A DNA stretch of 37,098 bases, from assembly GCA_913775525.1 (NCBI GenBank), contig CAJYLH010000011.1:1-37098 (forward strand), written 5' to 3'. Source of the DNA: an uncultured Chryseobacterium sp. GTDB taxonomy: Bacteria; Bacteroidota; Bacteroidia; Flavobacteriales; Weeksellaceae. Positions 4,764-35,553 of this stretch are shown here, one piece after another. Position numbers and translations under genes: made by a program. Position 1 is the stretch's first letter. The number at the start of each line of letters is the position of its first letter. The notes under the pieces were generated by a model. The model saw nothing but the letters and a program-made list of their open reading frames with translations. It was not told where the DNA came from and searched no databases.

Positions 4764-4808
4764 GTTCCTGCAAAAATCTATTTTCTAAAACGAATAACAA
4801 TAATAATC

Positions 4809-7022
4809 ATGAGCAATATAAAAAGTTCAAACGGGACCATCAATCCTTTTTACGCCGTTGAGATCGGAAGCATTGTAAAAAGTGATACCGGCCGTTTCCT
4901 CACCTCTGTCATCAAAGGGGACATCACCAAAATGGTTCCGGACAAGGAGGTAAAACAAACCATGACCGGAGGCAGCTCCTATGTCTATACAGACCGGCTG
5001 AACCAGGGTTCGGTAGGCGTATCCGGATCATACGGTATTTCCGGGCTCTCCAGCATTAACGCAGGTTTATCCGTCTATGCAGGTAATTCTGCCGCAGAAC
5101 TGACGAAGAAGGTAGCCATTAATTACAATGTACAGATGCTGTCCGGGGTAGAATACATTAATTTCAATGATTTAAAAGCGGAGGACCTGATCAATTCACT
5201 TCAGGCCAACCCTAAGCAGATGGCATTGCAGGCATTGGACAATTACAATGCCCTGATAAAGAAACTGGGATCCGATAATCTTTTAACCGTTATGCAGGCC
5301 CCGGCTGAGCATCCGGAAATTGTGAGCCTGGTCAATGCATGGGTAAAATCTGTCCAGCTGTTCTTCCAGAAACACGGCGACGGTATGGTGGTAGGCGTAG
5401 TCTGGGGAGGCATGGGAACCGTGTCCCTGGAAATGATCAGCTCATCGGGGGAAAGCAGTTGGAAATATGGCACCAAAGGAAACTTTACCTATTCGGGAGT
5501 CGGAAAGGCGATCACGGTGGAGGCAGCTTATGACGGAAGCAATTCCCGCAGGGAATCCAACGTGAATGTGACGACATCTTCCTGGTCAAGCGGCGGATGT
5601 GTGCAGCAGCAGATTAACGCGTGGAGCCAGGTGGTAGAAGGCAAGGCATTCAGCGACATCAGTTCTATCAGCCTGCTGGAAAAAGCACCGCCGGTAAGCT
5701 CGGTAGCCAATGCACCCAAAATACCCGAATTCAAAACACCGGAAAAGGATGCTAAAGTGACCGAGAAGGTCAACGAAATCAAGAACCTGACCAACCTGGA
5801 TGCCCTGGCGAAGACATCCGCTTTCGAGGAAGCGAAAAAGAAGGAAAAAGATCTGACCTTAGAGGAGTTTTTGAAACGCTCCGAGAAGAAAGCAGATCCG
5901 AAACCGGTTGATGATCTTAAAAAAGAAGTCGCCAACAACAATCTTGATGTCCTGAAAAAAAATGACGCTCCGAAAACACTGGCGCTCGACAACGAACTCA
6001 GGGTCATGAGGCCATCAGCGGCGGCGGCAGCCACCACAGAAAAAATCCAGCTGGGGAAAAAGGACGACAACTATACCGTGCTCGGCGTATGGATCAGCAA
6101 CTGGCCAGATCTCTTCCCATGGATGGCCACCGGGTACCTGAATGCCATAGATGACCTGAGCTCCACACAGGAACTGCTGAAAAAACAATCCATGATCCAG
6201 GATTTCCTTTCACTGGGGAAGACTTATTATATGCTGGATGCCAGCGGAATATCGGCTTCCAGTTTTAAGATGTCCCCGTTCAACCAGATTGCGGCTTCGT
6301 TCAGCCAGCAGGCAGGGTATATCAGGGATAATTTTGATGATGAAAGTGTTATCGAGAACGCCTATAACCAACTGAGCACGGATGCCCAGAAAATTTATAC
6401 GAAATGGAATGAAATCAAGTTCCTGCGCAGTGCAGAATTAGGGTTGGGAGTATTGTATCAGGGAGAAAAATCAATTGCGAATGACATTGTAAAAACAGAA
6501 TTCAACGCCGGGTATACCAACGTGTGGTACAAGACCGAAGACTGTTCGTTCTTACCGAATAATTACAGTGCCTTCAGCAGGTTTTTAAAAGTGCTTCCGT
6601 TCCTGACGCCTTCCGGGGATATTTATGCTTTCGGACCATCCCAGATGGTTCTGAACCAGATCAACAGCGACGGGGCCAAGTTTTCCAAAAACCCGTTAAT
6701 TGCGGCTAAGTTTGAAGTGGATATGGAGAAGCGCGTATTGAAAAAAGGCGATATCGTGTTGTATCCGGTGAAGTTCAGTGCGGCTAAGGATATCTCATCT
6801 ACGTGGGAGGGCCAGAGCATCAGTACCAATATCGCATCCATTAAGAATATTAATGAGCACCTGGATAATGCCGTAAAAAAGATGAAGGACCTGAACGTGT
6901 ACAGCTTCAGCAGCAGCAGCTGGCAGCCGGACTGGACGCCGGAAGACTATTACAGCATCAATTCCATCAAAAAGCAATACATTGGGATTGTAGATGAGCT
7001 GCATAATGTATTTGGCAACTAA
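4809..7022 (+). CDS. MACPF-type pore-forming partner of the aegerolysin
   Basis: A 737-residue protein without signal peptide or transmembrane helix. Residues 1-290 look like the MACPF fold: a Ser/Gly-rich amphipathic beta region (60-110), then FFQKHGDGMVVGVVWGG (185-201), which occupies the place of the Y/F-G-T-H-F/Y...GG signature but keeps only the Gly-containing frame, and a second Ser/Thr/Gly-rich hairpin region (206-265). Residues 300-415 form a Lys/Glu-rich, probably helical linker ending in an Ala run; residues 420-737 are a separate C-terminal domain that I do not recognise. Its place 45 bases after an aegerolysin gene matches the pleurotolysin A/B and AfIP-1A/1B pairs. The MACPF call therefore combines a weak motif with strong context. 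Confidence 0.8.
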   Translation: MSNIKSSNGTINPFYAVEIGSIVKSDTGRFLTSVIKGDITKMVPDKEVKQTMTGGSSYVYTDRLNQGSVGVSGSYGISGLSSINAGLSVYAGNSAAELTKKVAINYNVQMLSGVEYINFNDLKAEDLINSLQANPKQMALQALDNYNALIKKLGSDNLLTVMQAPAEHPEIVSLVNAWVKSVQLFFQKHGDGMVVGVVWGGMGTVSLEMISSSGESSWKYGTKGNFTYSGVGKAITVEAAYDGSNSRRESNVNVTTSSWSSGGCVQQQINAWSQVVEGKAFSDISSISLLEKAPPVSSVANAPKIPEFKTPEKDAKVTEKVNEIKNLTNLDALAKTSAFEEAKKKEKDLTLEEFLKRSEKKADPKPVDDLKKEVANNNLDVLKKNDAPKTLALDNELRVMRPSAAAAATTEKIQLGKKDDNYTVLGVWISNWPDLFPWMATGYLNAIDDLSSTQELLKKQSMIQDFLSLGKTYYMLDASGISASSFKMSPFNQIAASFSQQAGYIRDNFDDESVIENAYNQLSTDAQKIYTKWNEIKFLRSAELGLGVLYQGEKSIANDIVKTEFNAGYTNVWYKTEDCSFLPNNYSAFSRFLKVLPFLTPSGDIYAFGPSQMVLNQINSDGAKFSKNPLIAAKFEVDMEKRVLKKGDIVLYPVKFSAAKDISSTWEGQSISTNIASIKNINEHLDNAVKKMKDLNVYSFSSSSWQPDWTPEDYYSINSIKKQYIGIVDELHNVFGN

Positions 7023-7055
7023 TACAGGACAGTCATCAGAATGATAACAATACAG

Positions 7056-7092
7056 CCATCAGGAGGATTCATTTTCTCCTGATGGTTTTTTT
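7056..7092 (+). terminator. Rho-independent terminator after the MACPF gene
   Basis: A perfect ten-base-pair stem (CCATCAGGAG / CTCCTGATGG) with a ten-base loop, followed by seven T on the plus strand, 33 bases after the MACPF stop. It closes the two-gene toxin operon and overlaps the last bases of the convergent gene. Confidence 0.95.
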
Positions 7093-7624
7093 AATTGGGG
7101 TTAAGCAGATGCGTTATTTTCTGCATTGCATCCGGTTCCTGCTGTTCATAGTGCCTGTTTAGGATTAAATAGGAGCCTTGTTCAACGGAACAGGAATGAG
7201 TGAAACGTTCGGAATTAAAGAAAAATCCCGCAAAGTACCGATAGACGGACAGCCGCTTGTTCCTTACCCGGCCTGCTTTCCTTTGCTCATCAGCAGCCGG
7301 TCTTGCGATGAAAAAGAATGAGGCCAGCGGATGTTCCCGGTGGATCGATAACCCGATGGATGCGCACGTTACCAGGACCTTTTTTGCTACCGAAGGACCT
7401 ACATGGGCGAGCCGGTCAAATTTATCGTTGGTTTCACTGTTCTCTTCCAGGCAGAACTGAAGGACATAAACATGGTGCCGGTATTCCTCAAAAGTAGCCC
7501 GGTAACGGATGCCGTCAGCATTGAATTTGTAGACATGCACGGCTTTGAAATAATGGTCCGGATCATTGGACTTCAGGACTTCGCAAAATTCAACGGGATA
7601 GAATGGCAATTCAGCAAGCGACAT
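7091..7624 (-). CDS. Conserved hypothetical protein, 177 residues
   Basis: I do not recognise this soluble protein with certainty. It has no signal peptide or membrane segment. The middle (VGPSVAKKVLVTCASIGLSIHREHPLASFFFIARPA) and the following RNKRLSVYRYFAGFFFNSERF resemble, in layout, small Bacteroidota proteins (DUF6934-like) that carry a central helix and an R...LY motif, but the match is loose. It converges on the toxin operon and its stop codon lies in the T tract of that terminator. A TATATTTA box about 30-40 bases upstream on the minus strand may be its promoter. It appears to be a single-gene unit and there is no reason to link it to the toxin. Confidence 0.65.
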   Translation of the reverse strand: MSLAELPFYPVEFCEVLKSNDPDHYFKAVHVYKFNADGIRYRATFEEYRHHVYVLQFCLEENSETNDKFDRLAHVGPSVAKKVLVTCASIGLSIHREHPLASFFFIARPAADEQRKAGRVRNKRLSVYRYFAGFFFNSERFTHSCSVEQGSYLILNRHYEQQEPDAMQKITHLLNPN

Positions 7625-7928
7625 AAGAACGGTTTAAATCGGTAAGCATTGGATTAGTTTTTCATAAATATACAAAAAAAATGGGGCGGATCGAAGCTAT
7701 CTGCTTCTGATCTTACCTTGTGAAGCTTCTTTCCCATGCAGCCTTTGCCGCACTACCCCATTTCCGGTATTCCTTTTCGTTCCGGGTACAAAACTTTGGA
7801 TCAGAACCGGAACAAAGAAATCACAGTGAGATCAGGTTTAGGGACATCCGAAAACTATTTCAGAAAGCATCAGCGGAAAAAATACCGATGGCCAGGCATT
7901 ACAAAAAACTGAAAATCGCTCCTGCACT
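7625..7928. other. Intergenic region without a supported gene
   Basis: About 300 bases between the divergent-looking ends of two minus-strand genes. It holds the presumed promoter of the upstream gene near 7655-7670 and the 3' flank of the TetX-like gene. No hairpin with a T tract and no coding frame in keeping with the neighbours was seen. Confidence 0.5.
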
Positions 7929-9077
7929 TTATTTATCCTTGCCGGACTCCCTTTTCTCCCTCCGTATTTCAGCAAACCTTTTTTCAGAATGGATGCTGCT
8001 TTCTGCCTCCGCAGTATCTTCCTGGGCTTTTGAGGCATACGCAAACATCTGTGCTTCATACGCCTGTATGGCGGCATCAATGCTTGTACATGATTTGCTC
8101 AGCAGGTTTTCCGACAGGTATAATGCATCCAGCAGGCCGATGTTCACTCCAATTCCTGAAAACGGCGGCATCACATGCGCGGCATCGCCGATCAGCGTGA
8201 TGTTATAGTGCGGCTTCCATTTTTCCGGTCGCAGGCGGCGCATCGGCAGCAAGGTATATTCATCCGTCGCCGAAAACAATTGCCTGTACGCCGGGTTCCA
8301 GTCGGCAAACAGCTGGTCCAGATAGGCACTCACTGCTTTTTTATCGGTAAAATCCAGTCCGCATTCCCTGATCCACTGTTCCGGCCGGCGGAAAGAGATG
8401 TAGTAATTCAGCGCTCCGTTTGCTTTCGTCTGGGAAAAGACAAACATCTGCTCTGCAATGGCTGCCATATTTCCCTGTCCGCATAGTTGTTTAAAATCCG
8501 AGCAATGAAGATCAGGCTGCATCACTTCACCCTGGATCACTATCGTTCCCGTATATTCGGGATGGGCATCGGTAACCAGTTTCCGGACGTTGCTCATGCC
8601 GCCGTTCGCACCTACCACCATATCGGCAGCGACTGTATTCCCGCTTTCAAAATGCAGCAGAAAAGTTCCGTCCTGCTGTTGTTCCAGGGAGGTTAGTTTA
8701 CTGCCCCAGACTACCGTACCCGGATCCAAGTGTTCAAGAAGCATGGTCCGCAGATCGTTGCGGTCGATTTCCGGACGGTCGTACAGATGGCCTTCTGCCG
8801 GGTCATCTTCCTCCAGCAAAGTACCGTCCTGACCGGTCGAGCGTTCTGGTGTCGGCCTCGAATACCGGTAAAACTCATCTAAAAGCCCGGCCTTTTCCAG
8901 GGCTAACTGGCCGTAATCGTGATGGATGTCCAGGGTGCCGCCTTTGATCCGAGTGTGCTGGTTTCTATCCCGCTCATACACATGGACTTCCACCCCGGAT
9001 TGCTGCAATAATTTTGCAAAGGTTAAGCCTACCGGACCTGCTCCGATAACGGCTACCTTTTTATCTTGTAGTACCAT
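7929..9077 (-). CDS. TetX-like FAD-dependent monooxygenase
   Basis: A 382-residue class A flavin monooxygenase. The FAD fingerprint GAGPVG (residues 12-17), the R-x-x-G-G-T-L-D stretch (43-50), the DG-type motif around 154-164 (VVGANGGMSNVRK) and the GD motif LIGDAAHVMPPFSGIGVN (295-312) are all present and follow the tetracycline-inactivating enzyme TetX through the whole length. Of the residues that contact tetracycline in TetX, the Gln of the xQPDL segment is kept (187), but the His of GALHFG is Asn (224), the adjacent Gly is Tyr (226), the Arg after QLC is replaced, and GQG is GIG. So the substrate may differ. It is preceded by an AraC gene 25 bases upstream on the same strand, its likely regulator. 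Confidence 0.88.
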   Translation of the reverse strand: MVLQDKKVAVIGAGPVGLTFAKLLQQSGVEVHVYERDRNQHTRIKGGTLDIHHDYGQLALEKAGLLDEFYRYSRPTPERSTGQDGTLLEEDDPAEGHLYDRPEIDRNDLRTMLLEHLDPGTVVWGSKLTSLEQQQDGTFLLHFESGNTVAADMVVGANGGMSNVRKLVTDAHPEYTGTIVIQGEVMQPDLHCSDFKQLCGQGNMAAIAEQMFVFSQTKANGALNYYISFRRPEQWIRECGLDFTDKKAVSAYLDQLFADWNPAYRQLFSATDEYTLLPMRRLRPEKWKPHYNITLIGDAAHVMPPFSGIGVNIGLLDALYLSENLLSKSCTSIDAAIQAYEAQMFAYASKAQEDTAEAESSIHSEKRFAEIRREKRESGKDK

Positions 9078-9102
9078 AACCTCTATTTTAGTTAGGGCAA
9101 AA

Positions 9103-9849
9103 TTATTTCAGATGGCGTCCCGAAAATTGAATAAATCGGTCATTTTCGTTTTTCGACAGCTCTTTGGGAGAGACCCCCGATAATTTCTTCACTTCCCGGA
9201 TAAAATGCGCCTGGTCCGAAAAGTTCTGTTCCGGATATAGCCTCCCCTCTTTCAGCTGCCGGTAAGAAGACCTGAAACGCAAAAAAGTGCCGTATGATTT
9301 AAGCGAAACACCGAACTGCCGGTTGAAATACCGGTTGATCTGCCGGCTGCTCCAGCCCGTTTGCTCCGAAATTTCCGAAACCAAAACCGCACCGTTGGAT
9401 GCGTACAGGAGTTCAAACAGCTTTTTCTTTTTGGGATCGATCCCCTCCGGGATCAGCTGCCTGATCTTTTGCGTTGCCTTTTCTATCAGGCGTGCGGTAT
9501 CATACAAGTCGTCTTCACAGAATCCCCAGAAATCCTGAGGCAACGCCTGTGCCGAATCCACAATACCTGCAACGGGCTGCCCGAGAATGTATTCCGAAGC
9601 CATTAATTTAAAGCTGATCCCGAACATCCTGGTCACCGGCATTTCTATATCGGCTTCAAACCGGGTTCCCAGCCCAACCAGGGAAACCTCAAATGCACGG
9701 CCTTCCTCCTTCGATATGATCAGTTCAAAAAAAGCATCCGGAACAACCGTAACCGTAGTTCCCTCCACTGCATTTTCCACCGTCCAGTAACAGCTGACAA
9801 AATCGCTGATATCCGGATCGGGCTGATAATAGGTGGCGGTAAAGCTCAT
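9103..9849 (-). CDS. AraC-family transcriptional regulator
   Basis: A 248-residue regulator. The N-terminal ~130 residues (YYQPDPDISDFVSCYWTVEN...VVPDAFFELIIS) match the DUF6597-type sensory domain often found in Bacteroidota AraC proteins; the C-terminal part (about 150-240) carries the two helix-turn-helix units, with VSEISEQTGWSSRQINRYFNRQFGVSLKSY and FSDQAHFIREVKKLSGVSPKEL. It is transcribed just ahead of the TetX-like monooxygenase (25-base gap), so it probably controls that gene and itself in response to an unknown small molecule. Confidence 0.9.
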   Translation of the reverse strand: MSFTATYYQPDPDISDFVSCYWTVENAVEGTTVTVVPDAFFELIISKEEGRAFEVSLVGLGTRFEADIEMPVTRMFGISFKLMASEYILGQPVAGIVDSAQALPQDFWGFCEDDLYDTARLIEKATQKIRQLIPEGIDPKKKKLFELLYASNGAVLVSEISEQTGWSSRQINRYFNRQFGVSLKSYGTFLRFRSSYRQLKEGRLYPEQNFSDQAHFIREVKKLSGVSPKELSKNENDRFIQFSGRHLK

Positions 9850-9961
9850 AATGGATCTTTAAATGGGGCTGTAAAAATAAGCAATTCTAGTCTACCGCTA
9901 CTCTGAAACCTGCTTCATAAAAAATTGCTCCGGAAGGACTTGGCGGGAATGAGCCGATGGG

Positions 9962-10103
9962 GATGAATACGGACAGACCTATGACGTACTAAAGCGACAA
10001 CGCGTTTACCGAGCCGATTTTACCATGCATGGGGAAATATTTTGATGGGGATTATGCGGAAGTGAGAGTTTTATTTTGGTGGGATGATTACAAGATTGTT
10101 TGA
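9962..10103 (+). pseudogene. Frameshifted 3' remnant of an unknown gene
   Basis: On the plus strand one frame reads DEYGQTYDVLKRQRVYRADF-TMHGEIF and meets TGA at 10043-10045; one base further on, another frame reads FDGDYAEVRVLFWWDDYKIV and stops at 10101-10103. The two pieces read as one continuous protein C-terminus broken by a one-base shift near 10041-10044. No start or upstream part is present. I do not recognise the family. It lies exactly where the GC-balanced DNA gives way to the AT-rich island. Confidence 0.5.
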
Positions 10104-10226
10104 GATATTTTAAAATTTTATGTAAAACTTGAGATATATAATTTTTAGACAAATAGTACAAATGTAATTTTGACTAGATTGACGTATATCAATTATCAAT
10201 CTATCTTTAACATTAGATTCTACTAT

Positions 10227-12323
10227 CTACAGGCTTCTATAATTACATAATTCATCAAGTGTAAGTTGTTGTTTTTTGAACAACTCTTGGAATTCAGATT
10301 TTGTTATTCTAATTCTTATATTCCCAAATTTATCATAAGGATGAGCTTCAGTCTTTTGGTTTCTTTTCTCATTAATCTCTATCCAATGTTTATTACACAA
10401 AGGAAGTTGATTGTCAATTAGGTTTGCATTGAGATTAACACCATAATCTGTAGCTACTTTTATGATATTTAGTCTATTACAAATTTTATCAAATACTAAG
10501 TTGTTGAAAGTATTTAAGTTTAATAAAGATTTTGATGGATCATTAATTACTGACTTAATAAAAAGAAGAAAGGACATTCGCAATTCTTCGTATTCAGCAT
10601 CGTCATGCCAAATATTTCTATTAAAGAATGTTTCTGGAGTTTCAATTTTCCATTCATTTTTAAGAGTATGGACAATTATGTCTATTGGTTGCTTAATAAA
10701 TATGTATTTAATGAACTGGTTCTGTTCCTTTGTAATCTTAAAATTAAATAAATTTAAAGAATTGCTAAACAACAAATTCAATCCTTGGAGAGATAACATA
10801 CTATTTGAACTTTCAAGAAGTCGTGAAGCAAATATCTTTCTATACGATTTATCTGTCGAAATTGCATATTTGTAATTATTAAGTTCTCTTTGGATAAAAT
10901 AGTTTTCTGTTGAATTATCAGTTAATAATAATTCTTTTTTTTCATTAGCAAATAGCCAACCAACCATATAATAATTAACTAACCAATGTCTATGTTTTTC
11001 AAAAGTATAGAATTGATAAATTTTTTCATCGAATGGAAACTCTGGAAAGTATTTGAAACAAAGAGCAACAATATGACTAAATAATATATTTTCATCAGAA
11101 AGAATATTTTTCACAAATTGCTTAACGGCAATATCAGTGGAAAAGTGACTTTTTAAATAGAATAAAACACCTTCAAAATGTGTCAATATTAAATTATATT
11201 TCTCCAATAGCAATATCTTAATTTGTTCATCAGCGTTTAACTTATAGAGTGAAAAACCAATTACAGTTTTGTCCAAAAATCGCTCAGTAGAATTTTCATT
11301 AAAACAATTTAAGAATCTTTTTTTCAACTGCTTATGTGTCTTAGATTTTAGTCTTTTTGATACCTTCCCTTTTGTTTCTTCTTTGTATTCTTTTATAATA
11401 TCTGAGAATTTACTATTCTGAATTTTAAGCTCAGTATCAATATCCTCCACTTTTTTTATTAGAATTTTGCTTCCTTGTGGAATTAAGCCTATATCTCTTG
11501 AAATTAAATCAAGAGCTGCAATGAGTTTTTGAGAAGTCAAGTAATCTTTTGTAAGTATTCTGATATCATCAACATATCTCAAATACTTGTATTCTAATTT
11601 TTTAGTTGTTCGCTTTATTTCGCTATCAATATAGAAAAGATATAAATCTGCTAAGAATGGTGAACTTATAGGACCTTGTGGTATTCCATGTTTACTTTTG
11701 AAAGTCTTATGATTAGAGTCAGCGGTCCACGTTTCTAAACATTTTGATAAGAGTTCTAGCAATTCATCTTCTATGTTATAATTACTTTTAAGAAGTTCAC
11801 AAAGAATATTATGGTCAATAGTATCAAAAAATGACGCAATGTCAAATTCGCTTAAATAAATATACCCATTGACAAAATATTCTTTTGAGATTTCATTAAA
11901 TCGTTTCCATTTGCGCTTCCAAGATTTAAAAAAAAACTTTTGATTTACACCTTTGGCTGTTGATTTATTAATTACATTACCAAAAATTACCTTGCCGTAA
12001 TATGGAGAAATAGTGTCATATGCAGTATCTGCTATAATATTAACTATTGCTTGATAAACTAGCAAATCTATAAATGTCAACATTGATAGAGGCCTGACAA
12101 GATTATCTTTTTTAGGAATAAAAATTTTATGACATTTTTCTGGCTGATAAATACCTTGTCTGATATTTGTTATTACTGTCTCAATATTTTCATCAAGGTA
12201 TAAACCAAATATTCTGAGATCTTCATAATAAATACTCTTATATAAATTTCTTGATGCTGTTTTAAGTCTTTCATACGCGAGTTTAAAATTTTCTGACATC
12301 AAAAAACTATCGTACTGTATCAT
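10227..12323 (-). CDS. Unknown-group/Abi-type reverse transcriptase, candidate defence RT
   Basis: A 698-residue protein (from the ATG at 12321-12323; a TTG two codons earlier is possible). The N-terminal ~330 residues are a reverse transcriptase: RPLSMLTFIDLLVYQAI (motif 1 region), the catalytic FDIASFFDTIDH (Asp near 161), HGIPQGPISSPFLADLY, and the active-site YVDD (250-253) in LRYVDDIRIL. The remaining ~360 residues are Lys/Phe/Leu-rich, predicted helical, and lack maturase, endonuclease or integrase motifs, so it is not a group II intron or retroelement of the usual kind. RTs with such helical extensions belong to the unknown-group (UG)/AbiA/AbiK/DRT class, many of which defend against phage. 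I cannot assign a UG number. Codon use is far more AT-rich than in genes on either side. Confidence 0.88.
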   Translation of the reverse strand: MIQYDSFLMSENFKLAYERLKTASRNLYKSIYYEDLRIFGLYLDENIETVITNIRQGIYQPEKCHKIFIPKKDNLVRPLSMLTFIDLLVYQAIVNIIADTAYDTISPYYGKVIFGNVINKSTAKGVNQKFFFKSWKRKWKRFNEISKEYFVNGYIYLSEFDIASFFDTIDHNILCELLKSNYNIEDELLELLSKCLETWTADSNHKTFKSKHGIPQGPISSPFLADLYLFYIDSEIKRTTKKLEYKYLRYVDDIRILTKDYLTSQKLIAALDLISRDIGLIPQGSKILIKKVEDIDTELKIQNSKFSDIIKEYKEETKGKVSKRLKSKTHKQLKKRFLNCFNENSTERFLDKTVIGFSLYKLNADEQIKILLLEKYNLILTHFEGVLFYLKSHFSTDIAVKQFVKNILSDENILFSHIVALCFKYFPEFPFDEKIYQFYTFEKHRHWLVNYYMVGWLFANEKKELLLTDNSTENYFIQRELNNYKYAISTDKSYRKIFASRLLESSNSMLSLQGLNLLFSNSLNLFNFKITKEQNQFIKYIFIKQPIDIIVHTLKNEWKIETPETFFNRNIWHDDAEYEELRMSFLLFIKSVINDPSKSLLNLNTFNNLVFDKICNRLNIIKVATDYGVNLNANLIDNQLPLCNKHWIEINEKRNQKTEAHPYDKFGNIRIRITKSEFQELFKKQQLTLDELCNYRSL

Positions 12324-12357
12324 AATCAACTTTTTTTAATTGAGCAATAAATATCAT
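12307..12357 (-). CDS. Short leader ORF with strong Shine-Dalgarno, overlapping the RT start
   Basis: A 16-codon frame (MIFIAQLKKVDYDTVR) starting at 12357. It is preceded by a perfect AGGAGGTG (complement of 12364-12371) six bases before its ATG, which is unusual for a phylum that rarely uses Shine-Dalgarno. Its stop lies 14-16 bases inside the RT gene in another frame, so termination would release ribosomes right at the RT start, which has no such signal of its own. This arrangement suggests translational coupling or attenuation. Whether the peptide itself matters is unknown. Confidence 0.5.
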   Translation of the reverse strand: MIFIAQLKKVDYDTVR

Positions 12358-12422
12358 TGTCTTCACCTCCTAATATTTCACTTGTTTTGAAATTATTTTT
12401 TTTAATCATCAGATAACGTAAT

Positions 12423-12860
12423 TTAATAATGATTTTGTAACCTTTTAATTTCATCTAAAGTTGATTTTAATAGAGATGGAACTTTCTTATTAATTAATTC
12501 CAGATAAGATATTTTTGATGCATTAAAAGTATCTATTACAATACAATATTCTTCTGAAATTTTATACTGATCTAAATAATGTTTGTTTAAAAATTCATAC
12601 AATACCTCACAAAAAATACCAAGATTAGCTTTTGTAAAACCACCGAGTTGTGGAACTAGTAACAATGATCCAATAAAATCCTTTCCGTCTTGTTCAAAAT
12701 GATATACTAAATCAGGATTAATATAAATGGGAAAATTCTGTATTGTAATTACTTTTATAGATTTATGAGTTGTCTCAAACTTGATTATATTTGTTGGTCT
12801 TAGAGTTAAAATATCAAATTCTTTAAAACTTTTTAATATATCCAAATTTCTTTGATACAT
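12423..12860 (-). CDS. Unknown 145-residue partner of the RT
   Basis: I do not recognise this protein. It is soluble, acidic-basic mixed, with alternating beta-type segments (KVITIQNFPIYINPDLVYHF, DFIGSLLLVPQLGGF) and C-terminal helices (LGIFCEVLYEFLNKHYLDQY, VPSLLKSTLDEIKRLQNHY). The ATG has a moderate AAAAGGA signal eight bases upstream. The frame stays open without a stop for about 50 codons further upstream, into the slippery run of the membrane-protein gene, so a longer fusion form is possible. It is followed after 99 bases by the RT gene on the same strand and shares its AT-rich composition, so it is a candidate accessory component of the RT system. Confidence 0.65.
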   Translation of the reverse strand: MYQRNLDILKSFKEFDILTLRPTNIIKFETTHKSIKVITIQNFPIYINPDLVYHFEQDGKDFIGSLLLVPQLGGFTKANLGIFCEVLYEFLNKHYLDQYKISEEYCIVIDTFNASKISYLELINKKVPSLLKSTLDEIKRLQNHY

Positions 12861-12934
12861 AATTTGGTCCTTTTCAATATCAGTATTTTTTTGTCTATCT
12901 GATACATCTTTAATCTTCTTATCATAATATTCAT

Positions 12935-13123
12935 CTATACCATATTTAAAAGTATTATAAATACAACTATTACTAATACTCCAATAATTCCCACCACCAC
13001 TTTTCTCATCCTCTTTTTTTTTTTTTCCTTTCTTGTTTTGAGTTTTAATGCAAAGTTTAGTTTTGATTTTTCAGAGCCCTTTGTTCTAAATTCAACTAAT
13101 TCCTTAATTCTTATTTTCTCCAT
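12935..13123 (-). CDS. Small tail-anchored membrane protein
   Basis: A 62-residue protein: a Lys/Arg-rich soluble N-terminus (1-40), including a Lys4 stretch, then one hydrophobic helix (about 43-60, VVVGIIGVLVIVVFIILL) at the very C-terminus, i.e. tail-anchored topology. The Lys stretch is encoded in a 13-A homopolymer (complement of 13014-13026) containing the slippery heptamer A-AAA-AAG in frame. No family recognised. It lies between the lipoprotein and the 145-residue gene on the same strand. It could be an effector or anchor of the RT locus, but this is only inference from position. Confidence 0.55.
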   Translation of the reverse strand: MEKIRIKELVEFRTKGSEKSKLNFALKLKTRKEKKKKRMRKVVVGIIGVLVIVVFIILLNMV

Positions 13124-13208
13124 GATGATTAGTTTTCTAAAATTTGATAATATTAAATATATTTTGCTGTAAAATTAAATTTTAGATTTCATTTTACTTA
13201 ATTTTAGA

Positions 13209-13226
13209 TTTACGGTTTTCCGTAAA
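13209..13226. repeat. Short hairpin, copy 1
   Basis: Inverted repeat TTTACGG-TTTT-CCGTAAA about 85 bases upstream of the small membrane-protein gene. A near-identical hairpin occurs at 13846-13861 upstream of the lipoprotein gene, so this may be a shared regulatory element of the island. Confidence 0.55.
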
Positions 13227-13311
13227 AACAAAAATAAAAGCCATCATAAAATCTCCATTCAGTATTTTCACTGAATTTCATATTAAACAAGTAGACTTAT
13301 CCATCTAAAAA

Positions 13312-13339
13312 ACAAAAAATCTGACATAAGCCAGATTTT
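13312..13339 (-). terminator. Terminator after the lipoprotein gene
   Basis: Stem AAAATCTG/CAGATTTT with an eight-base loop; on the minus strand it is followed by a T-rich tract (complement of the A run at 13308-13319). It lies 28 bases after the lipoprotein stop, so the lipoprotein is probably a separate unit from the genes further downstream. Confidence 0.75.
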
Positions 13340-13367
13340 AAATTCCATTCATATTTAATTAGATGCA

Positions 13368-13769
13368 TTACCTTCTTCTTGGAGCACTTCTTGTGTGTGA
13401 ACTTACACGGGTTCCATCTTTTCTAGTGTAGCCTTTTACGTGAACCGTTCCACCGCTGCTCGTACTTGGCGTGTAATGATAGGAAGGTGCTGATGTAGTA
13501 TAGCTTTTGGCTGGTGAGTAGGAACTATAAGTAGTATAACTTGGATTATAAGCCAGACCATAATAATTTCCCCATTTTATTTTTTTGTAATTTTTTTTAT
13601 TTGCCTTAGTGGAAATGTAGACTTGGGTGTCTTTAGGTATTGTAGTTACAATACTTTCATTACTACTAGCTGCATATACATTGGTATCTTCTGTTAATAG
13701 TACTGTATAGTAATTTGTACAAGAAACCATTGATACAAGAATGATTAGAAAGAAAGCGATTTTTTTCAT
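13368..13769 (-). CDS. Small lipoprotein with SH3-like region
   Basis: A 133-residue exported lipoprotein: signal peptide MKKIAFFLIILVSMVSC with the lipobox Cys at 17. Residues 20-75 (YYTVLLTEDTNVYAASSNESIVTTIPKDTQVYIS...KIKWGNYYGLAYN) resemble a bacterial SH3-like domain, followed by a Tyr/Ser/Thr/Pro-rich linker and a C-terminal VKGYTRKDGTRVSSHTRSAP motif, a short module (KGYxRKDGTxVxxHxRS) widespread in bacterial envelope proteins. It probably sits in the envelope facing peptidoglycan. Its own terminator follows. Similar small proteins often appear in mobile islands; a link to the RT is not shown. Confidence 0.75.
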   Translation of the reverse strand: MKKIAFFLIILVSMVSCTNYYTVLLTEDTNVYAASSNESIVTTIPKDTQVYISTKANKKNYKKIKWGNYYGLAYNPSYTTYSSYSPAKSYTTSAPSYHYTPSTSSGGTVHVKGYTRKDGTRVSSHTRSAPRRR

Positions 13770-13845
13770 GGATTTATTATCTATTTATAATTAAGATTTC
13801 TTCATGTTTAATAGTGCAAACTTATTTTATTATTTATTTTAAATA

Positions 13846-13861
13846 TTACGGCTTTCCGTAA
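13846..13861. repeat. Short hairpin, copy 2
   Basis: Inverted repeat TTACGG-CTTT-CCGTAA about 77 bases upstream of the lipoprotein start and just after the xre terminator; same element as at 13209-13226. Confidence 0.5.
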
Positions 13862-13864
13862 AGC

Positions 13865-13901
13865 AAAAAAGAAATCCTACTTTCGTCAGGATTTCTTTTT
13901 T
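13865..13901. terminator. Symmetrical terminator at the end of the xre gene
   Basis: Stem GAAATCCT/AGGATTTC with a nine-base loop, flanked by six A on one side and six T on the other, so it can act on both strands. It includes the xre stop codon and ends the repressor transcript ahead of the lipoprotein gene. Confidence 0.85.
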
Positions 13902-14173
13902 GCTTCAAGCTCTTTTATAAAATCGTATTTCTTTTCGCGAATCGGATCATCAGGTAAAAAATCCTTTATAGAACATCCAAGTGCTATAGCAATCAAATTC
14001 AAACTTTTAATATTGTATTTAGCCGTTTTTGATTGCGCCTCTATGTCTGAAATATAACTTGTGCTTTTTCCAATAGCCAATGATAAAGAGGTCTGGCTTA
14101 TACCTTTTTCCTCCCTGATATCTTTAATTCTTTTGATAACATACTGTTCAATTTGGTCTAGAGAATTGTGCAT
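13886..14173 (-). CDS. Xre-family HTH repressor
   Basis: A 95-residue DNA-binding protein (ATG at 14171-14173; an upstream in-frame TTG at 14197 is less likely). The helix-turn-helix is clear: IREEKGISQTSLSLAIGKSTSYISDIEAQSKTAKYNIKSLNLIAIALGCSIKDFLP, the layout of phage-type Cro/C1 and restriction-modification controller proteins. A perfect 14-base palindrome lies 37 bases upstream, between this gene and the divergent RNA gene, and is the likely operator. It probably represses itself and perhaps the RNA promoter. It is the outermost protein gene of the AT-rich island. Confidence 0.88.
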   Translation of the reverse strand: MHNSLDQIEQYVIKRIKDIREEKGISQTSLSLAIGKSTSYISDIEAQSKTAKYNIKSLNLIAIALGCSIKDFLPDDPIREKKYDFIKELEAKKKS

Positions 14174-14209
14174 AAATACAAATTGATGCAAATTCAAATA
14201 AAAAAACTA

Positions 14210-14223
14210 AGGACTATAGTCCT
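14210..14223. promoter_or_regulatory. Perfect palindrome, likely Xre operator
   Basis: AGGACTATAGTCCT is a perfect 14-base palindrome in the divergent interval between xre and the structured RNA. Size and position fit a dimeric Xre-family repressor site. Confidence 0.65.
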
Positions 14224-14245
14224 GTATTTGTAAAAATTATTATAT

Positions 14246-14277
14246 TTGCATTATAAGTTACAGTAAACGTAACTTTG
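14246..14277 (+). promoter_or_regulatory. Plus-strand promoter of the structured RNA
   Basis: A perfect Bacteroidota -7 box TAACTTTG at 14270-14277, with a TTG at 14246-14248 about 21 bases upstream as -33 element. An inverted repeat (AGTTAC/GTAACT, 14256-14274) overlaps the -7 box and could be a second operator. Predicted start of transcription is near 14284. Confidence 0.55.
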
Positions 14278-14283
14278 CGATAC

Positions 14284-14463
14284 TTCAACGATTATTATTA
14301 GAAGCTATTGCTTAGATTCTTGTACTAGAAAACTGGTAATTTTCAAACGACCACAAGATGATAAGTAGTGAAGCTCACGACCTAGGCGTGAGTTCTCTTA
14401 TCTGTGGTCAGGTATACCAGTGCCTCTAGTACGGATATGTAGAGCTCTACGCCGTTTTTATTT
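14284..14463 (+). ncRNA. Candidate structured non-coding RNA
   Basis: No protein frame fits, but a long nested fold does. Stem 14322-14329/14425-14432 (GTACTAGA/TCTAGTAC) leads across a small internal loop into 14332-14338/14415-14421 (ACTGGTA/TACCAGT), then 14349-14359/14400-14409 (GACCAC/GTGGTC plus AGAT/ATCT with one bulge), and an apical hairpin CTCACG/CGTGAG (14374-14379/14387-14392) whose loop contains the self-complementary CCTAGG. It ends in a hairpin (ACGG...CCGT around GTAGAGCTCTAC, 14431-14455) followed by TTTTTATTT, an intrinsic terminator on the plus strand. A promoter lies upstream. I know no matching RNA family. Being beside a UG-type RT, it could be that enzyme's template or cofactor RNA, as in several DRT systems; that is inference. 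Confidence 0.65.
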
Positions 14464-14783
14464 CATGCAGTCCGCTACCTCTACAGAATTTCTAAGCCAA
14501 TCCTTCTCACCGATAAAGTGTTATGTAAGTGTGAGTGTTTTTTTGGATGTACCGGACATGATATCCGTGTATGTCTTCTGCTTTCCGGTGCCCGGCGGCC
14601 AATACTTTGATCCTTTTTTGGTTACCCGGTTCTTTTCCCCGCCAAAGGGCACCTGGAAAGCGTTTTAAAAACACCAAAAACCTTGCTTTTAAGCATACCA
14701 GTAAATTAGGACAGTCAACAAACAAACTGTTCCGGGAACCTGTAGGTTCAGCCGGAACCTCATCAACACAAAAAAACATCCGT
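14464..14783. other. Leader region of the 186-residue gene
   Basis: About 320 bases without a supported gene. Composition returns to that of the host. It has a TA-C-TTTG box near 14603-14611 that could be a promoter and a strong double hairpin at 14729-14758 just before the next start codon. Confidence 0.45.
14729..14758 (+). promoter_or_regulatory. Stacked leader hairpin before the 186-residue gene
   Basis: Outer arms GTTCCGG/CCGGAAC enclose inner arms GAACCT/AGGTTC, giving a 13-pair hairpin with a two-base bulge, ending 25 bases before the ATG at 14784. There is no T tract after it, so a translational or RNA-stability role is more likely than termination. Confidence 0.5.
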
Positions 14784-15344
14784 ATGAAAAAAGAAACCAT
14801 CAACGTAAAACACCGGCTGAAACCCAGCCACAAAAAGCACTCCAGCCTGAAAATGCTGGACACATTCTTCCGGTTCAACGGCCTGACCACCGCCAAAGAT
14901 ATGTTGAACACCATCATGCAGTACGCCGTACAGAAAAGAGGCTGGATAGACGAAGATTATTCCGCCATTGTCCACTTCCACCAGTCGATGCGGTCATTCA
15001 TCCGCGCCGGGTATTTTCTCCGCATGAAAAGCAAAAAATGGATGATTACCACCTCAGCTGAAACCATTTCCCCTCTGATGCAAGGCTCCCTTTCGGATGA
15101 AGAATACCACAATCCCCTGCTCGTTTTCCATACAGCTTTCACCGCCTACACCGTAAAGGAATTCGATTATTTCCTGGGCGGAATGGTTTATTTCTCTCTC
15201 GGCGCCTACCGCTGCGGCCCGGAAAAGAATATGGTAAGCCCGTATATTTATCTGACGAAAATGCTGGATGCAGGGTTTGTTATTCTGGAACGGAGGAAGG
15301 CTTTTTTAGAAACTAAAGAAAGTGAAGATTATCAAACAAGCTGA
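14784..15344 (+). CDS. Conserved hypothetical protein, 186 residues
   Basis: Not recognised as any named family. The ATG at 14784 is chosen over the longer open frame because residues before it (SSAFRCPAANTLILFW...) look like translated leader. The protein is basic at the N-terminus (KHRLKPSHKKHSSLK) and then mostly helical (MLDTFFRFNGLTTAKDMLNTIMQYAVQKRGWIDEDYSAIVHFHQSMRSFIRAGYFLRM) with no signal peptide or clear membrane helix. It reads like an orphan-gene family spread in Chryseobacterium. It is a single unit between the AT-rich island and a repeat cluster. Confidence 0.7.
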   Translation: MKKETINVKHRLKPSHKKHSSLKMLDTFFRFNGLTTAKDMLNTIMQYAVQKRGWIDEDYSAIVHFHQSMRSFIRAGYFLRMKSKKWMITTSAETISPLMQGSLSDEEYHNPLLVFHTAFTAYTVKEFDYFLGGMVYFSLGAYRCGPEKNMVSPYIYLTKMLDAGFVILERRKAFLETKESEDYQTS

Positions 15345-15415
15345 TCAAGCGAACGGTTAAGATTTGCGGATAGAAATGCCTTTTACTTGATCACTACAGG
15401 CTTGTGTTACAGTTA

Positions 15416-15680
15416 AAAACCTAACGGGTTTTGGAAACCCGTTAGGTTTAGAAACAGATGATCTCTGATGGAAACCTTCAAGGTTTTTAAAACCTTGAAG
15501 GTTTGGAAGTGGGAAAAAGATTCCCGGATGGAATGCTGATCCGATTATCTGATCTTCCAAAAGATTATCTTGCGCTGAGAAAAACCTCATAGGTTTTGAA
15601 AACCTATGAGGTTTGAATGCCTGCCAGAGTATTTTATTTTTTTGCTCGCGGCTTACAGATGGCGCAGGTTTTTATTGGCG
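15416..15680. repeat. Palindromic mosaic repeat, copy 1
   Basis: Three hairpins in a row with fixed spacers: arms around CCTAACGGG (15416-15449), CCTTCAAGG (15472-15504) and CCTCATAGG (15581-15614), then a unit ending in GCTCGCGG...GGCGCAGG. All hairpins share AAACCT...AGGTTT ends and differ only in the core. Further copies lie at 18085-18880. The copy sits directly after the 3' end of the outer-membrane gene. Confidence 0.85.
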
Positions 15681-15685
15681 TCCGG

Positions 15686-18007
15686 CTATAATCTGTTTGC
15701 GTTTTCATTGACCGTACTTTCTTTGTACGCAGATTTCATCAGTTTTCCGAAATTATACTTTACCGCGATGCTTACCGTTGGCGTATTCCCGAAGAAGGTA
15801 CCTGTAGAGGTCATTTGCCGGTAACTCATTTTCTGGATGTAATTCATCTGATTGAAAATATCATTATATCGAACCGTAAAATCAAAATTGGAAACAGAAG
15901 AAGTTACGCCGAGGTTCACCAGGCACATCGCATTGTAGTCATATAATCCCTCAACGCGTTTCGTGATGTAGGAGCCGTCCAGCAGGAAAGATAAATGCGT
16001 AAGTACAGCAAAAGTATTGTTTGTAGAAAAATAAAGGTACGGGGTGGATTTTTTGAGCACCGCTAAAGAGTCCTGTGTTGTATCGTAGTTCAGGGATAAG
16101 CTGTTCTGGGAAGTCCATTTTTTCCATTGGATGGGATAGTCTACGGATATACTGCTTCCGGATGCTTTATCAAAATTGACGGCTGTGAACTTTGAAATAT
16201 GGCTAGTTTCATCATACACCAAAGTATAGCCCATCGTATTTTTACTGGTGTATACGGATGCGTTGAAAGACCATTTTTTCAGATTCGTGCTGAAAGAAAC
16301 GGTATGGGTGTACGTTGGGATGAGGTTTGGGTTCCCGGTATATTCTACATAAGGGCTTCCGTATAATCCGCCGGAAGCCAGGTCACCGTAATTGGGCCGG
16401 GAAATGCTTTTCCGGAAATTGAGCGTGTACACTTGGTCTTCGTTCTGCTGAAAGCTGATCTCTGCATTGGGAAACCAATCAATATAGGCTCTTTTGATTT
16501 TGGTTTCACTGACCGTCTGATCAAAACCATTCGCAGACGTGGTTTCCATTCTCAGGCCCCCTTTTACTTTCCATTTTTCACCGTTGATTCCGAGGTTGAG
16601 GTATGCGGCAAGATTAGATTCCTTAAACAGATACTTATAATAAGTGATATCCTGGATGTTATGGTAACGGGTACTGTTATGGGTGCGGGTTTCTGCTTTC
16701 GTGTAGCTTCCCCCCGATTCTAAAATGATTTTCTTATCAAATTTCTTTTCAAAATCAATCCTTCCCGAATACACATTCCCGGCATAGCGCTGACGCCTGA
16801 ACTGGCTGAATTCATACGGTGCACTGTTGATGCTGTTGAAAAAATCGTACTCTACACCGTTACTTTCCCTGGTAAATTGCAATCCCGTAAAAATATTGGC
16901 ATCCCAGGCTGATATTTTTTTATTGTAATTAAAAATGGAATTCACCGTTGAGCGTTTCCTGTCCTGATGGTTCAAGGTTTTCACGTATGATGTGTTGCCG
17001 TCTTCAGAATACAGCGTATTGGTGGTATTATCCCCTTTATCCGGGCGGAAATTGCTGTTTAAAGATAATGTAATATAATCCCCGGTATCATTCAGTTCCC
17101 GGTACAGGCTTGCTCCGAAAATGGTTTGTGGGCGCCGGGTCACCGATTGGATCACGTAATCCGAATAGATATTTTCACTGGGAACAGAATATTCAAAGCC
17201 GTTGCTCTCCCAGTGATGGATAGGATTGAAGGCGGCATTCAGCTTCCACTCGGTTTTATTCTTTTTCTGCTGAAAGTTGGCCGCAAGGTAGTTGCTGAAC
17301 CGCTTCTGAAAACTGGCCGTTTCCAAAATGGTCAGTTTAGCACCATCCCTCCTGCTCTTTTTGAGGTTCACTTTAATCACGGCTTTTCCCTCAGCCTCAT
17401 ACTTTATGGAAGGGTTCCTGATGACTTCTACCGATTTAATATCATCAACCGCTACCGCGGACAGTGTTGAAAAATCCACCCTCTGGTTATCGATATACAG
17501 CAACGGCACTCCTTTTCCAATGAAAGATAATCCTTCCCCGTTGGTATCCATAGTGACAAAAGGCAGCTTGGATAATAATTCGGAGGAAGTCGGCAGCTTA
17601 TTTAATGGGGAATCAGCCACATCAATGGTCATATTTCCATTCTCGACTTTAAAATTCTTCTCCTTTCCTGTAATGGCAACTTCCTCAATCTGCTGTATTT
17701 TCGGTGTGTAAATGACGGTTAAACCTACATTGTTTTCCAGGAGGAATGGCTTTTCATTCTGAATGGTTTCATCGGAAGAGACCTGAAGATAATATGTTCC
17801 GGGTTTGATCCGGCTGAATGTAAATAGTCCATCCTGTGTATGGTCTGATCCTATCAGCTGGTTTCCCTGATCAAATAATTTAATATGAACAGGTCGGGTT
17901 ATTTTTTCTTTTTGTTCATTGACAATAGTCCCGGTAATATTAAACTTATCTTGTCCGTAATTGAATATGGAGACGAAGAATAAGATCAGAATAGAAACGT
18001 GCTTCAT
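15686..18007 (-). CDS. Outer-membrane beta-barrel protein, TonB-receptor-like
   Basis: A 773-residue protein with signal peptide (MKHVSILILFFVSIFNYG-Q). Residues ~22-95 form a carboxypeptidase-regulatory-like beta domain (FNITGTIVNEQKEK...GTYYLQVSS), ~110-225 a plug-like domain (VEEVAITGKEKNFKVENGNMTIDVADSPL...IDNQRVDFSTLSAVAVDDIKSVEVIRNP), and the rest a long antiparallel barrel ending KYNFGKL..., as in the outer_membrane_beta-barrel (PF14905) family. These resemble TonB-dependent receptors, but no clear TonB box is seen and no SusD partner follows, so the ligand is unknown. It is a single gene flanked on both sides by copies of the palindromic mosaic repeat. Confidence 0.9.
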   Translation of the reverse strand: MKHVSILILFFVSIFNYGQDKFNITGTIVNEQKEKITRPVHIKLFDQGNQLIGSDHTQDGLFTFSRIKPGTYYLQVSSDETIQNEKPFLLENNVGLTVIYTPKIQQIEEVAITGKEKNFKVENGNMTIDVADSPLNKLPTSSELLSKLPFVTMDTNGEGLSFIGKGVPLLYIDNQRVDFSTLSAVAVDDIKSVEVIRNPSIKYEAEGKAVIKVNLKKSRRDGAKLTILETASFQKRFSNYLAANFQQKKNKTEWKLNAAFNPIHHWESNGFEYSVPSENIYSDYVIQSVTRRPQTIFGASLYRELNDTGDYITLSLNSNFRPDKGDNTTNTLYSEDGNTSYVKTLNHQDRKRSTVNSIFNYNKKISAWDANIFTGLQFTRESNGVEYDFFNSINSAPYEFSQFRRQRYAGNVYSGRIDFEKKFDKKIILESGGSYTKAETRTHNSTRYHNIQDITYYKYLFKESNLAAYLNLGINGEKWKVKGGLRMETTSANGFDQTVSETKIKRAYIDWFPNAEISFQQNEDQVYTLNFRKSISRPNYGDLASGGLYGSPYVEYTGNPNLIPTYTHTVSFSTNLKKWSFNASVYTSKNTMGYTLVYDETSHISKFTAVNFDKASGSSISVDYPIQWKKWTSQNSLSLNYDTTQDSLAVLKKSTPYLYFSTNNTFAVLTHLSFLLDGSYITKRVEGLYDYNAMCLVNLGVTSSVSNFDFTVRYNDIFNQMNYIQKMSYRQMTSTGTFFGNTPTVSIAVKYNFGKLMKSAYKESTVNENANRL

Positions 18008-18084
18008 TATTGTTTTTCAGATACAACAATCAACAGTGAGTTTTTATTACATGTATTGATTGTTTACAAGCTTATTTGCAGTAA

Positions 18085-18424
18085 GAAAAACCTAACGGGT
18101 TTCAAAAACCCGTTAGGTTTAGAAACAGATGATCTCTGATAGAAACCTTCAAGGTTTGGAAGGGACAAAAGGTTTCCGGATGGAATGCTGATCCGATTAT
18201 CTGATTTTCCAAAAGATTATTTTGCGCTGAGAAAAACCTCATAGGTTTTGAAAACCTATGAGGTTTGAATGCCTGCCAGAGTATTTTATTTTTTCGCTCG
18301 CGGATTACAGATGGCACAGGTTTTTATTGGCAGTAAGACCTGCGTAATCTGCGAGCAAATTTATTTTCAAAGTTTCTTAATCAACAAGAAAACCCTAACA
18401 GGCTTTGAAAACCTGTTAGGGTTA
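18085..18424. repeat. Palindromic mosaic repeat, copy 2
   Basis: Same order as copy 1: CCTAACGGG hairpin (18085-18120), a half CCTTCAAGG unit whose second arm is missing, CCTCATAGG hairpin, GCTCGCGG...ACCTGCG...GCGAGC hairpin, closed by a CCTAACAGG hairpin (18391-18423). Lies upstream of the outer-membrane gene. Confidence 0.85.
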
Positions 18425-18474
18425 AAATAATAATTACCTTTCACAGATTTCCATATTAAGATCAGGATTGAATA

Positions 18475-18763
18475 GAACCTTCAAGGTTTTAAAAAACCTT
18501 GAAGGTTTGGAAGTGTGAAAAAGATTCCCAGATGAAATGCTGATCGCGTTATCTGATCTTCCAAAAGATTATCTTGCGCTGAGAAAAACCTCATAAGTTT
18601 TGAAAACCTATGAGGTTTGAATGCCTGCCAGAGTATTTTATTTTTTCGCTCGCGGATTACAGATGGCGCAGGTTTTTATTGGCAGTAAGACCTGCGTAAT
18701 CTGCGAGCAAATTTATTTTCAAAGTTTCTTAATCAACAAGAAAACCCTAACAGGCTTTGAAAA
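18475..18763. repeat. Palindromic mosaic repeat, copy 3
   Basis: Begins with the CCTTCAAGG hairpin (18475-18507), then the CCTCATAGG hairpin with one mismatch, the GCTCGCGG...GCGAGC hairpin, and the left arm of a CCTAACAGG hairpin, where it joins copy 4. Confidence 0.85.
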
Positions 18764-18880: not shown

Positions 18881-18919
18881 AATTTACAGGTGAAGAGTCT
18901 AAAACATCAGCATGCAGAT

Positions 18920-35491: not shown

Positions 35492-35553
35492 ATCTAAAAT
35501 CATCATATTCTTTACTTACTTTTCTTTTGCCTTGAAGCAAAAGAAACAAAAAT

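What the first reader, a model, noticed from the sequence alone, without database searches (positions are those of the whole stretch)
10104..14463. Candidate undescribed reverse-transcriptase defence locus in an AT-rich island
The RT at 10227-12323 has all catalytic motifs (FDIASFFD, PQG, YVDD) and a ~360-residue helical extension but no maturase, endonuclease or integrase. Around it, within one block of sharply higher AT content, are a 145-residue unknown protein, a tail-anchored membrane protein, an Xre repressor and a structured RNA. RT plus small partner, membrane protein and RNA is the pattern of DRT/UG systems, yet I cannot match this set to DRT1-9, AbiA/K or retrons. Defence function is inferred from family and composition.
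Basis: partly seen in the sequence, partly recalled or inferred. Interest (0 to 1): 0.8.

Follow-up and report, generated by a model that had tools for sequence, protein, structure and literature searches.

The report
UG19 antiviral-type RT in RNA-led slot
The gene is a rare but already catalogued kind of bacterial reverse transcriptase linked to virus defence, and it sits beside an unnamed structured RNA that recurs in this genome next to other defence genes.

Summary
The RT is real (12323-10227, minus strand, 698 aa, YVDD) and belongs to a catalogued group: it matches PADLOC's RT_UG19 nearly end to end (1e-177) and forms a clade with three other UG19 RTs, apart from group II and CRISPR RTs. 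The 'tail-anchored membrane protein' is an off-frame reading of a ~230-aa gene (p230) that also contains the 145-aa ORF; the frame breaks at a 13-A run and relatives carry it intact. Four UG19 RTs have four different neighbourhoods. p230 relatives sit beside DRT2, UG5-nitrilase RT, Gabija, Hachiman and TIR genes. The structured RNA is real (11 of 37 pairs covary), is probably read away from the RT, and recurs in this genome (six full copies, one weak). Across from 8 of 9 strong chromosomal copies a small ORF starts at similar spacing; behind it lies variable cargo: UG19 here, a type III-A retron and Gabija elsewhere. Best reading: a UG19 defence RT carried as cargo in a repeated RNA-plus-regulator slot. 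Defence activity, DNA product and the RNA's role are untested.

The parts
10227..12323 (-). UG19-group reverse transcriptase, 698 aa, YVDD
   Evidence: RT_UG19 590.7 bits, protein 5-697, profile 2-560 of 562; start from homology to L002; differences from L002 by codon position 99, 64, 309
   Evidence: 11 intact relatives align across both ORFs
13014..13026 (-). run of 13 A on the minus strand where the p230 reading frame switches; the only A/T run of 10 or more in the window
   Evidence: alignment with L018
13368..13769 (-). 133-aa lipoprotein-like ORF, no family; not found in the other fetched loci outside this genome region
13886..14173 (-). Xre-type HTH regulator (start by eye; listed ORF begins at 14197)
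   Evidence: HTH_3 1e-9; 74% identical relative in L060
14210..14223 (.). palindrome AGGACTATAGTCCT in the HTH promoter region, candidate operator
   Evidence: near-copy before the related HTH of L060
14237..14241 (.). edge where homology between the own-genome backbone copies ends and copy-specific cargo begins
   Evidence: blast ends at 14237, 14241, 14237, 14239 in four copies, 14270 in a fifth
14300..14467 (+). conserved structured RNA (model R1)
   Evidence: 178.5 bits; 11 of 37 pairs with changes on both sides
14784..15344 (+). gene of about 187 codons of the repeated backbone (inside the listed 257-aa ORF)
   Evidence: relatives in C39, C40, C6, C23, L060 and L018, not found in L047, L061, L062

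Best explanation
The island is a UG19-type defence reverse transcriptase carried as cargo in a repeated chromosomal slot. The slot's common part is a structured RNA, in most copies with a gene of about 187 codons. Beyond a sharp edge (about 14237) comes a small regulator gene, here an Xre-type HTH with a palindrome in its promoter region, then interchangeable cargo: here a lipoprotein-like gene, p230 and the UG19 RT. Shown by sequence: the RT's family, selection on the RT, the covarying RNA, the repeated common part, the changing cargo. Inferred: the HTH represses cargo through the palindrome; on phage infection the RT makes DNA, untemplated or on an RNA not found here, that stops the phage or the cell, as studied DRTs do. 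p230 is taken as a general companion of defence loci rather than an RT subunit; here its frame is broken.
For: RT_UG19 full-length match, next group 200.8 bits; clade of four UG19 RTs 99/97; dN 0.11 with saturated dS against L002; common part at six further places in the own genome, one of them partial; covariation 11 of 37 pairs, 0 of 500 shuffles; small divergent ORF at similar spacing in 8 of 9 strong chromosomal copies; recognised defence cargo beside 4 of these 9: UG19, retron III-A (3e-125, 1.6e-153), Gabija (1e-283, 1.5e-242), PDC-S56 (1e-206).
Against: No defence cargo was recognised beside 5 of 9 strong copies: the 994-aa gene of L060 was scanned without a match, the genes beside C39, C40, C23 and L062 were not scanned. 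The 187-codon gene is missing beside 3 of 9. On the two plasmids the RNA stands near a lexA-type or a replication gene, and G061 and G537 have none. The HTH label was tested by profile only in the window. With strong RNA copies alone only one further RT lies near (P 0.03). The ten cargo proteins were chosen because they looked promising.
Confidence: 0.55

Rival explanations
1. Dedicated new DRT operon: RT, 145-aa partner, membrane protein, Xre and RNA act together.
For: The genes are adjacent in one AT-rich block on one strand; p230 lies within 300 bp of RT genes in three other genomes, expected 0.01.
Against: Membrane protein is an off-frame reading; the RTs beside p230 are DRT2 twice and UG5-nitrilase, not UG19; other UG19 RTs lack p230, Xre and RNA.
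Confidence: 0.08
2. The nearby structured RNA is the template or cofactor RNA of this RT, as in class 2 DRTs.
For: Class 2 DRTs use a cis ncRNA (passages of PMC13174585 and PMC12632851); the RNA is about 2 kb from RT domains here and at C6.
Against: The same RNA stands beside Gabija and beside copies without a recognised RT; no R1 match in L002, L005 or L030.
Confidence: 0.08
3. The conserved hairpin acts as DNA: a recombination site (comparable to integron attC sites) at which cargo is exchanged.
For: Homology ends sharply beside it and cargo differs between copies; the L002 RT is also flanked by long hairpins.
Against: 25 of 403 pair cells are G-U on the plus strand, which would be A-C on the other strand and favours an RNA; terminator-like end and promoter-like boxes by eye; no integrase gene noticed among the window's ORFs; L002's hairpins do not match R1.
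Confidence: 0.15
4. A decaying island: the RT is an inactive remnant.
For: p230 is frame-broken; among the sampled genomes of the family (296) and order (395) only the own genome has this RT.
Against: The RT frame is open with all motifs, and differences from L002 fall mainly on third positions. The break at a homopolymer may be an assembly error or slippage.
Confidence: 0.1

Closest known systems
UG19 reverse transcriptases (PADLOC PDLC03756, listed under DRT)
   Same: Full-length profile match, RT core plus long C-terminal part, clade with three other UG19 RTs
   Different: No feature of the RT itself sets it apart; its setting (p230, RNA-led slot) is not shared by the other three UG19 loci fetched
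Characterised DRT systems (DRT1-DRT3, DRT9, DRT10)
   Same: Same wide UG family; RT without intron, maturase or integrase parts
   Different: Profile scores to Drt1a, Drt2, Drt3a and Drt9 are only 47-60 bits; no SLATT partner and no RNA tied to the RT was found; no activity data
Defence islands and integration hotspots (for example the E. coli pan-genome study PMC10121019; listing and start of abstract seen)
   Same: Common surroundings with exchangeable defence cargo
   Different: Here the common part is a structured RNA, mostly with a 187-codon gene, at several places of one genome, with a small divergent ORF at similar spacing; no integrase noticed
Type III-A retron and Gabija (own-genome copies C6 and C14)
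   Same: They occupy the same kind of place beside the same RNA
   Different: Unrelated effectors; the UG19 RT is neither a retron RT nor part of Gabija

Membership tests
UG19 RT | Full-length match to the group profile, clearly above other groups | tested here: met
   590.7 bits, next UG21 200.8
UG19 RT | Clusters with other UG19 RTs in a tree | tested here: met
   Four rows 99/97 in an 11-row tree; few groups sampled, both DRT2 rows dropped by the motif filter
DRT (defence-associated RT) | Protects against phage, dependent on the catalytic site | not testable with these tools
   Needs a phage challenge
DRT class 2 | Own cis ncRNA beside the RT | tested here: inconclusive
   RT flanks fold no better than shuffles (z 1.14 and -0.10); the nearby RNA R1 is not specific to RTs
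DRT class 1 | C-terminal helical-repeat domain | tested here: inconclusive
   The C-terminal part is there, but the model is unusable (pLDDT 34)
Group II intron RT/maturase | Score above the curated cut-off, maturase domain | tested here: not met
   110 vs 300 bits; no maturase domain in Pfam
Retron | Retron RT above curated cut-off | tested here: not met
   57.4 vs 235 and 26.8 vs 600 bits
Known Rfam RNA (for R1) | Match to an Rfam family at 14300-14467 | tested here: not met
   No match there at gathering score or at E up to 1
Defence hotspot | Same common part, different defence cargo | tested here: met
   Four recognised systems beside 9 strong RNA copies; 5 of 9 without a recognised one

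The most novel reading that the evidence does not exclude
A so far unnamed structured RNA of Bacteroidota, often paired with a protein of about 187 residues and facing a small regulator gene, is a shared control or sensor module for unrelated anti-phage systems (UG19, type III-A retron, Gabija and others): cargo is plugged in behind one common RNA-led promoter region at several places per genome.
Probability: 0.25. Interest if true: 0.85.

Novelty: new variant of a known kind. Interest (0 to 1): 0.55.

Why it matters
In the library searched, UG19 turns up for bacterial RTs only as a label in one table, so a complete UG19 locus makes an untested group testable. More widely, the repeated RNA-led slot and the p230 family, which stands beside recognised defence genes in 6 of 13 other loci, would be handles for finding uncatalogued defence systems in Bacteroidota and for asking whether one RNA family controls several of them.

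Tried and rejected
The 62-aa protein as a membrane partner: rejected as an off-frame reading. R1 as a known RNA: no Rfam match at its place. RNAs directly flanking the RT: not structured beyond shuffles. AlphaFold models of the RT (pLDDT 34) and of the p230 fragment (pLDDT 42.5) were unusable, so no fold search was run. Viral-contig scans, two for the RT and two for p230, found no relative. No plasmid or phage record covers 80% of the RT (0 of 1340 and 0 of 21 matching records). L005's 232-aa neighbour shows no similarity to the p230 fragment. A 22-nt inverted repeat near both island ends (14219-14240, 10138-10159) was noted and not tested in other copies; in such AT-rich DNA it may be chance. 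The RT tree lost both DRT2 rows (13 given, 11 kept) because the YxDD filter missed them, and the UG5 row has a very long branch.
Full report
Observation. The AT-rich block is real: GC 0.25-0.29 in 1-kb windows inside 10001-14000 against 0.37-0.53 in windows of 4001-10000 and 14501-20000. Its candidate genes lie on the minus strand. The RT ORF has RVT_1 (1.2e-16) as its only Pfam match above cut-off. Its start is most likely the ATG at 12323: DNA homology with L002 runs from there to 10245, inside the last codons, and does not extend into the flanks.

What the RT is. PADLOC's RT_UG19 matches residues 5-697 at 590.7 bits (1e-177). The next group, UG21, has 200.8 bits; Drt8 has 75, Drt1a, Drt2, Drt3a and Drt9 have 47-60. 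Group II (110 bits, cut-off 300) and retron models (57.4 and 26.8, cut-offs 235 and 600) are not met. In an 11-row tree the window RT, L002, L005 and L030 form a clade (99/97) apart from two group II RTs, a CRISPR-associated RT, a phage RT, a type III-A retron RT and others. Each of the four has UG19 as its best profile by a wide margin. Against L002, differences fall 99, 64, 309 by codon position, dN 0.11, dS saturated at 3.3: the protein is under purifying selection.

How rare. Matches at the set thresholds: 1 of 296 genomes drawn from the family and 1 of 395 of the order, both times only the own genome; 2 of 395 of the phylum, own and G372; 2 of 294 of G372's class, G372 and G1048. The contig collection gave one locus, L002, 3164 bases, filed under a Woesearchaeota MAG; that it is a misplaced Bacteroidota contig is my guess. 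No plasmid or phage record covered 80% of the query.

Are neighbours conserved? Four UG19 RTs, four settings. The window has p230 upstream. L002 has the RT between two long hairpins that share a 14-base stretch, reminiscent of gene cassettes (no shuffle control was made for these folds). L005 has a 232-aa gene 62 bp downstream without a family and without similarity to the p230 fragment. L030 has an overlapping 211-aa gene that matches PADLOC's RTas1465 at 7e-12. Only the RT is common to the four.

The 'membrane protein' and the 145-aa protein. Homologues of the 145-aa ORF lie in 10 of 246 family genomes besides the own and on a Hymenobacter plasmid. flags one stop in two of these matches; the ORFs end there, and all 11 genes are intact. 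They encode about 223-237 aa and align across both window ORFs. All read GG(D/N)YW where the 62-aa ORF reads its hydrophobic stretch; the window has that peptide in the other frame. The switch lies at a run of 13 A (13014-13026), the only A/T run of ten or more in the window. Differences from the 84%-identical relative L018 fall 24, 16, 42 by codon position in the other frame, and 2, 2, 8 in its first 28 codons, which cover the disputed stretch. Whether this is an assembly error, slippage or loss cannot be told.

p230 as a defence companion. Neighbours tested by profile: DRT2 RTs in L018 and L024 (3e-123, 1.5e-127), a UG5-nitrilase RT in L027 (8e-210), GajA and GajB in L021 (1.6e-211, 2.6e-289), HamB in L022 (2.3e-80), a TIR protein in L019 (6.5e-20). 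That is 6 of the 13 non-window loci (10, Hymenobacter, two in G537). The Hymenobacter copy follows a DUF4041/T5orf172 gene. Restriction genes in L023, L026 and L027 were recognised by eye only; the tested neighbour in L025 had no match; L020, L034 and L035 showed nothing clear. The 12 genomes hold 13 RTs and 13 p230 genes; without the window pair, 3 pairs lie within 300 bp where 0.01 is expected by uniform placement. Defence genes cluster, so this overstates a specific link. No convincing family: nothing above cut-off in Pfam, one member of 11 with a weak NCBIfam match (0.007), best solved chain at 0.12.

The structured RNA. The stretch 14300-14463 folds at z -4.9. Searching the own genome with 14190-14570 gave six further places, one of them partial. 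At C39 and C40 the shared stretch is 1.4 kb at 91% and 89% and includes a neighbouring gene of about 187 codons; C6, C23 and C14 share shorter stretches. Relatives of that gene stand beside 6 of the 9 strong chromosomal RNA copies (own C11, C39, C40, C6, C23 and L060), not beside C14, L061 or L062. Homology ends at window 14237-14241 on the cargo side in four copies and at 14270 in C23. Model R1 finds 6 full own copies and a weak seventh (30 bits), and nothing in L002, L005, L018 or L030; 2 in G239; 7 in G103, one above 100 bits and six at 34-73; none in G061 and G537; and one each on plasmids of Chryseobacterium shandongense and Rhizosphaericola mali, the latter from another class, near a lexA-type and a replication gene. 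On 11 sequences aligned to the model, 11 of 37 pairs change on both sides and 96.8% of 403 cells pair; none of 500 shuffles reaches any of the five measures. The model alignment leans towards its structure; a MAFFT alignment folded on its own gives 10 of 41 such pairs. By my count, 25 cells are G-U on the plus strand, which speaks for an RNA read away from the RT. A terminator-like end (14439-14460) and TAnnTTTG boxes (14242-14249, 14270-14277) are by eye, the latter from a recalled Bacteroidota consensus; the terminator scan did not list that end.

What stands across from it. In 8 of 9 chromosomal copies above 100 bits a small ORF of 83-121 codons starts, divergent, 259-306 nt from the 3' end of the RNA match, that is about 97-137 nt from its 5' end; starts are mechanical. 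In the ninth (L061) a 109-aa MazG-like gene (by eye) starts at 333. Only the window's ORF was tested as HTH; for the others the label is by eye, and doubtful for C23. In 6 of the 9 the best palindrome of the promoter region begins 62-76 nt from the RNA; 7, 89, 0, 3, 48 and 1 of 300 shuffles do as well, so some are weak. The 74%-identical HTHs of the window and L060 share nearly the same palindrome, as expected of regulator and operator. Recognised cargo: UG19 (window), type III-A retron (C6: PRTase 3e-125, RT 1.6e-153), Gabija (C14: 1e-283, 1.5e-242), PDC-S56 1e-206 with an AbiO-like gene 2e-12 (L061). I scanned ten proteins there, nine of them cargo chosen because they looked promising; the 994-aa gene of L060, the 279-aa gene of C14, the 109-aa gene of L061 and the 187-codon gene gave nothing; cargo of C39, C40, C23 and L062 was not scanned. 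Of 8 RTs other than the window's in five genomes, 3 lie within 3 kb of an RNA copy against 0.05 expected (P 2.5e-5); two of these depend on weak copies in G103, and with strong copies alone it is 1 against 0.03 (P 0.03). In L018 a relative of the 187-codon gene, an HTH-like ORF, p230 and DRT2 stand together without the RNA.

Mechanism. Most likely the RT is a DRT-type enzyme whose DNA synthesis, triggered by phage, harms phage or cell. From passages seen of PMC13174585 and PMC12632851: class 1 UG RTs studied so far make untemplated, in cases protein-primed DNA; class 2 copy a cis ncRNA into repeats. Which applies to UG19 I could not settle: no structured flank beside the RT and no usable model. 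Repression by the HTH until infection is inference.

What is in print. 'UG19' with reverse transcriptase(s): one search lists five papers, of which only PMC8934634 is by title on bacterial RTs; passages of it show the name in one table row. The paper that defined the UG/Abi classes is not held; what I say of it is recalled. Three narrow searches for an RNA or slot of this kind listed nothing fitting; most subscription papers are not held.

Verdict. The repeated RNA-led slot and the p230 companion family are the new part: well supported as sequence features, their function inferred.

Noticed in passing
L018 7521-8210, L024 7642-8322, L027 8534-9226, L021 8261-8941, L022 7627-8313, L019 7976-8653: p230 family (about 230 aa, motif GG[DN]YW), without a convincing family name, stands beside DRT2 (twice), UG5-nitrilase RT, Gabija, Hachiman HamB and TIR genes.
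   Followed up: partly
L002 455-625 and 2718-2880: The 83%-identical UG19 RT is flanked on both sides by long hairpins sharing a 14-base stretch, like a single-gene cassette.
   Followed up: partly
L063 9544-9720 and L064 5679-5847: Weaker R1 copies in G103 lie within 3 kb of two more RT genes; in L063 the RNA faces an operon that ends in a 650-aa RT.
   Followed up: partly
L049 6003-6158 and L050 5980-6147: The same RNA family on plasmids of Chryseobacterium shandongense and Rhizosphaericola mali, near a lexA-type gene and a replication gene.
   Followed up: partly
window 13194-13238 and 13830-13874; L018 7407-7422: TTACGGNNNNCCGTAA palindrome before the lipoprotein-like ORF and before p230, and before p230 in L018.
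   Followed up: no
window 15395-15680, 18056-18840, 35434-36143: Families of dispersed repeats with short palindromes, also present at C39 and C40.
   Followed up: no
window 1-128: 99% identical to a stretch close to the end of contig C14, so the assembly probably breaks at a repeat there.
   Followed up: no
L060 2264-5248: 994-aa protein near the RNA and a relative of the window's HTH; looks like an HD plus GHKL-ATPase fusion by eye, no PADLOC match.
   Followed up: partly
L030 9270-9905: 211-aa gene overlapping a UG19 RT matches PADLOC's RTas1465 (7e-12), a possible true partner in that lineage.
   Followed up: no
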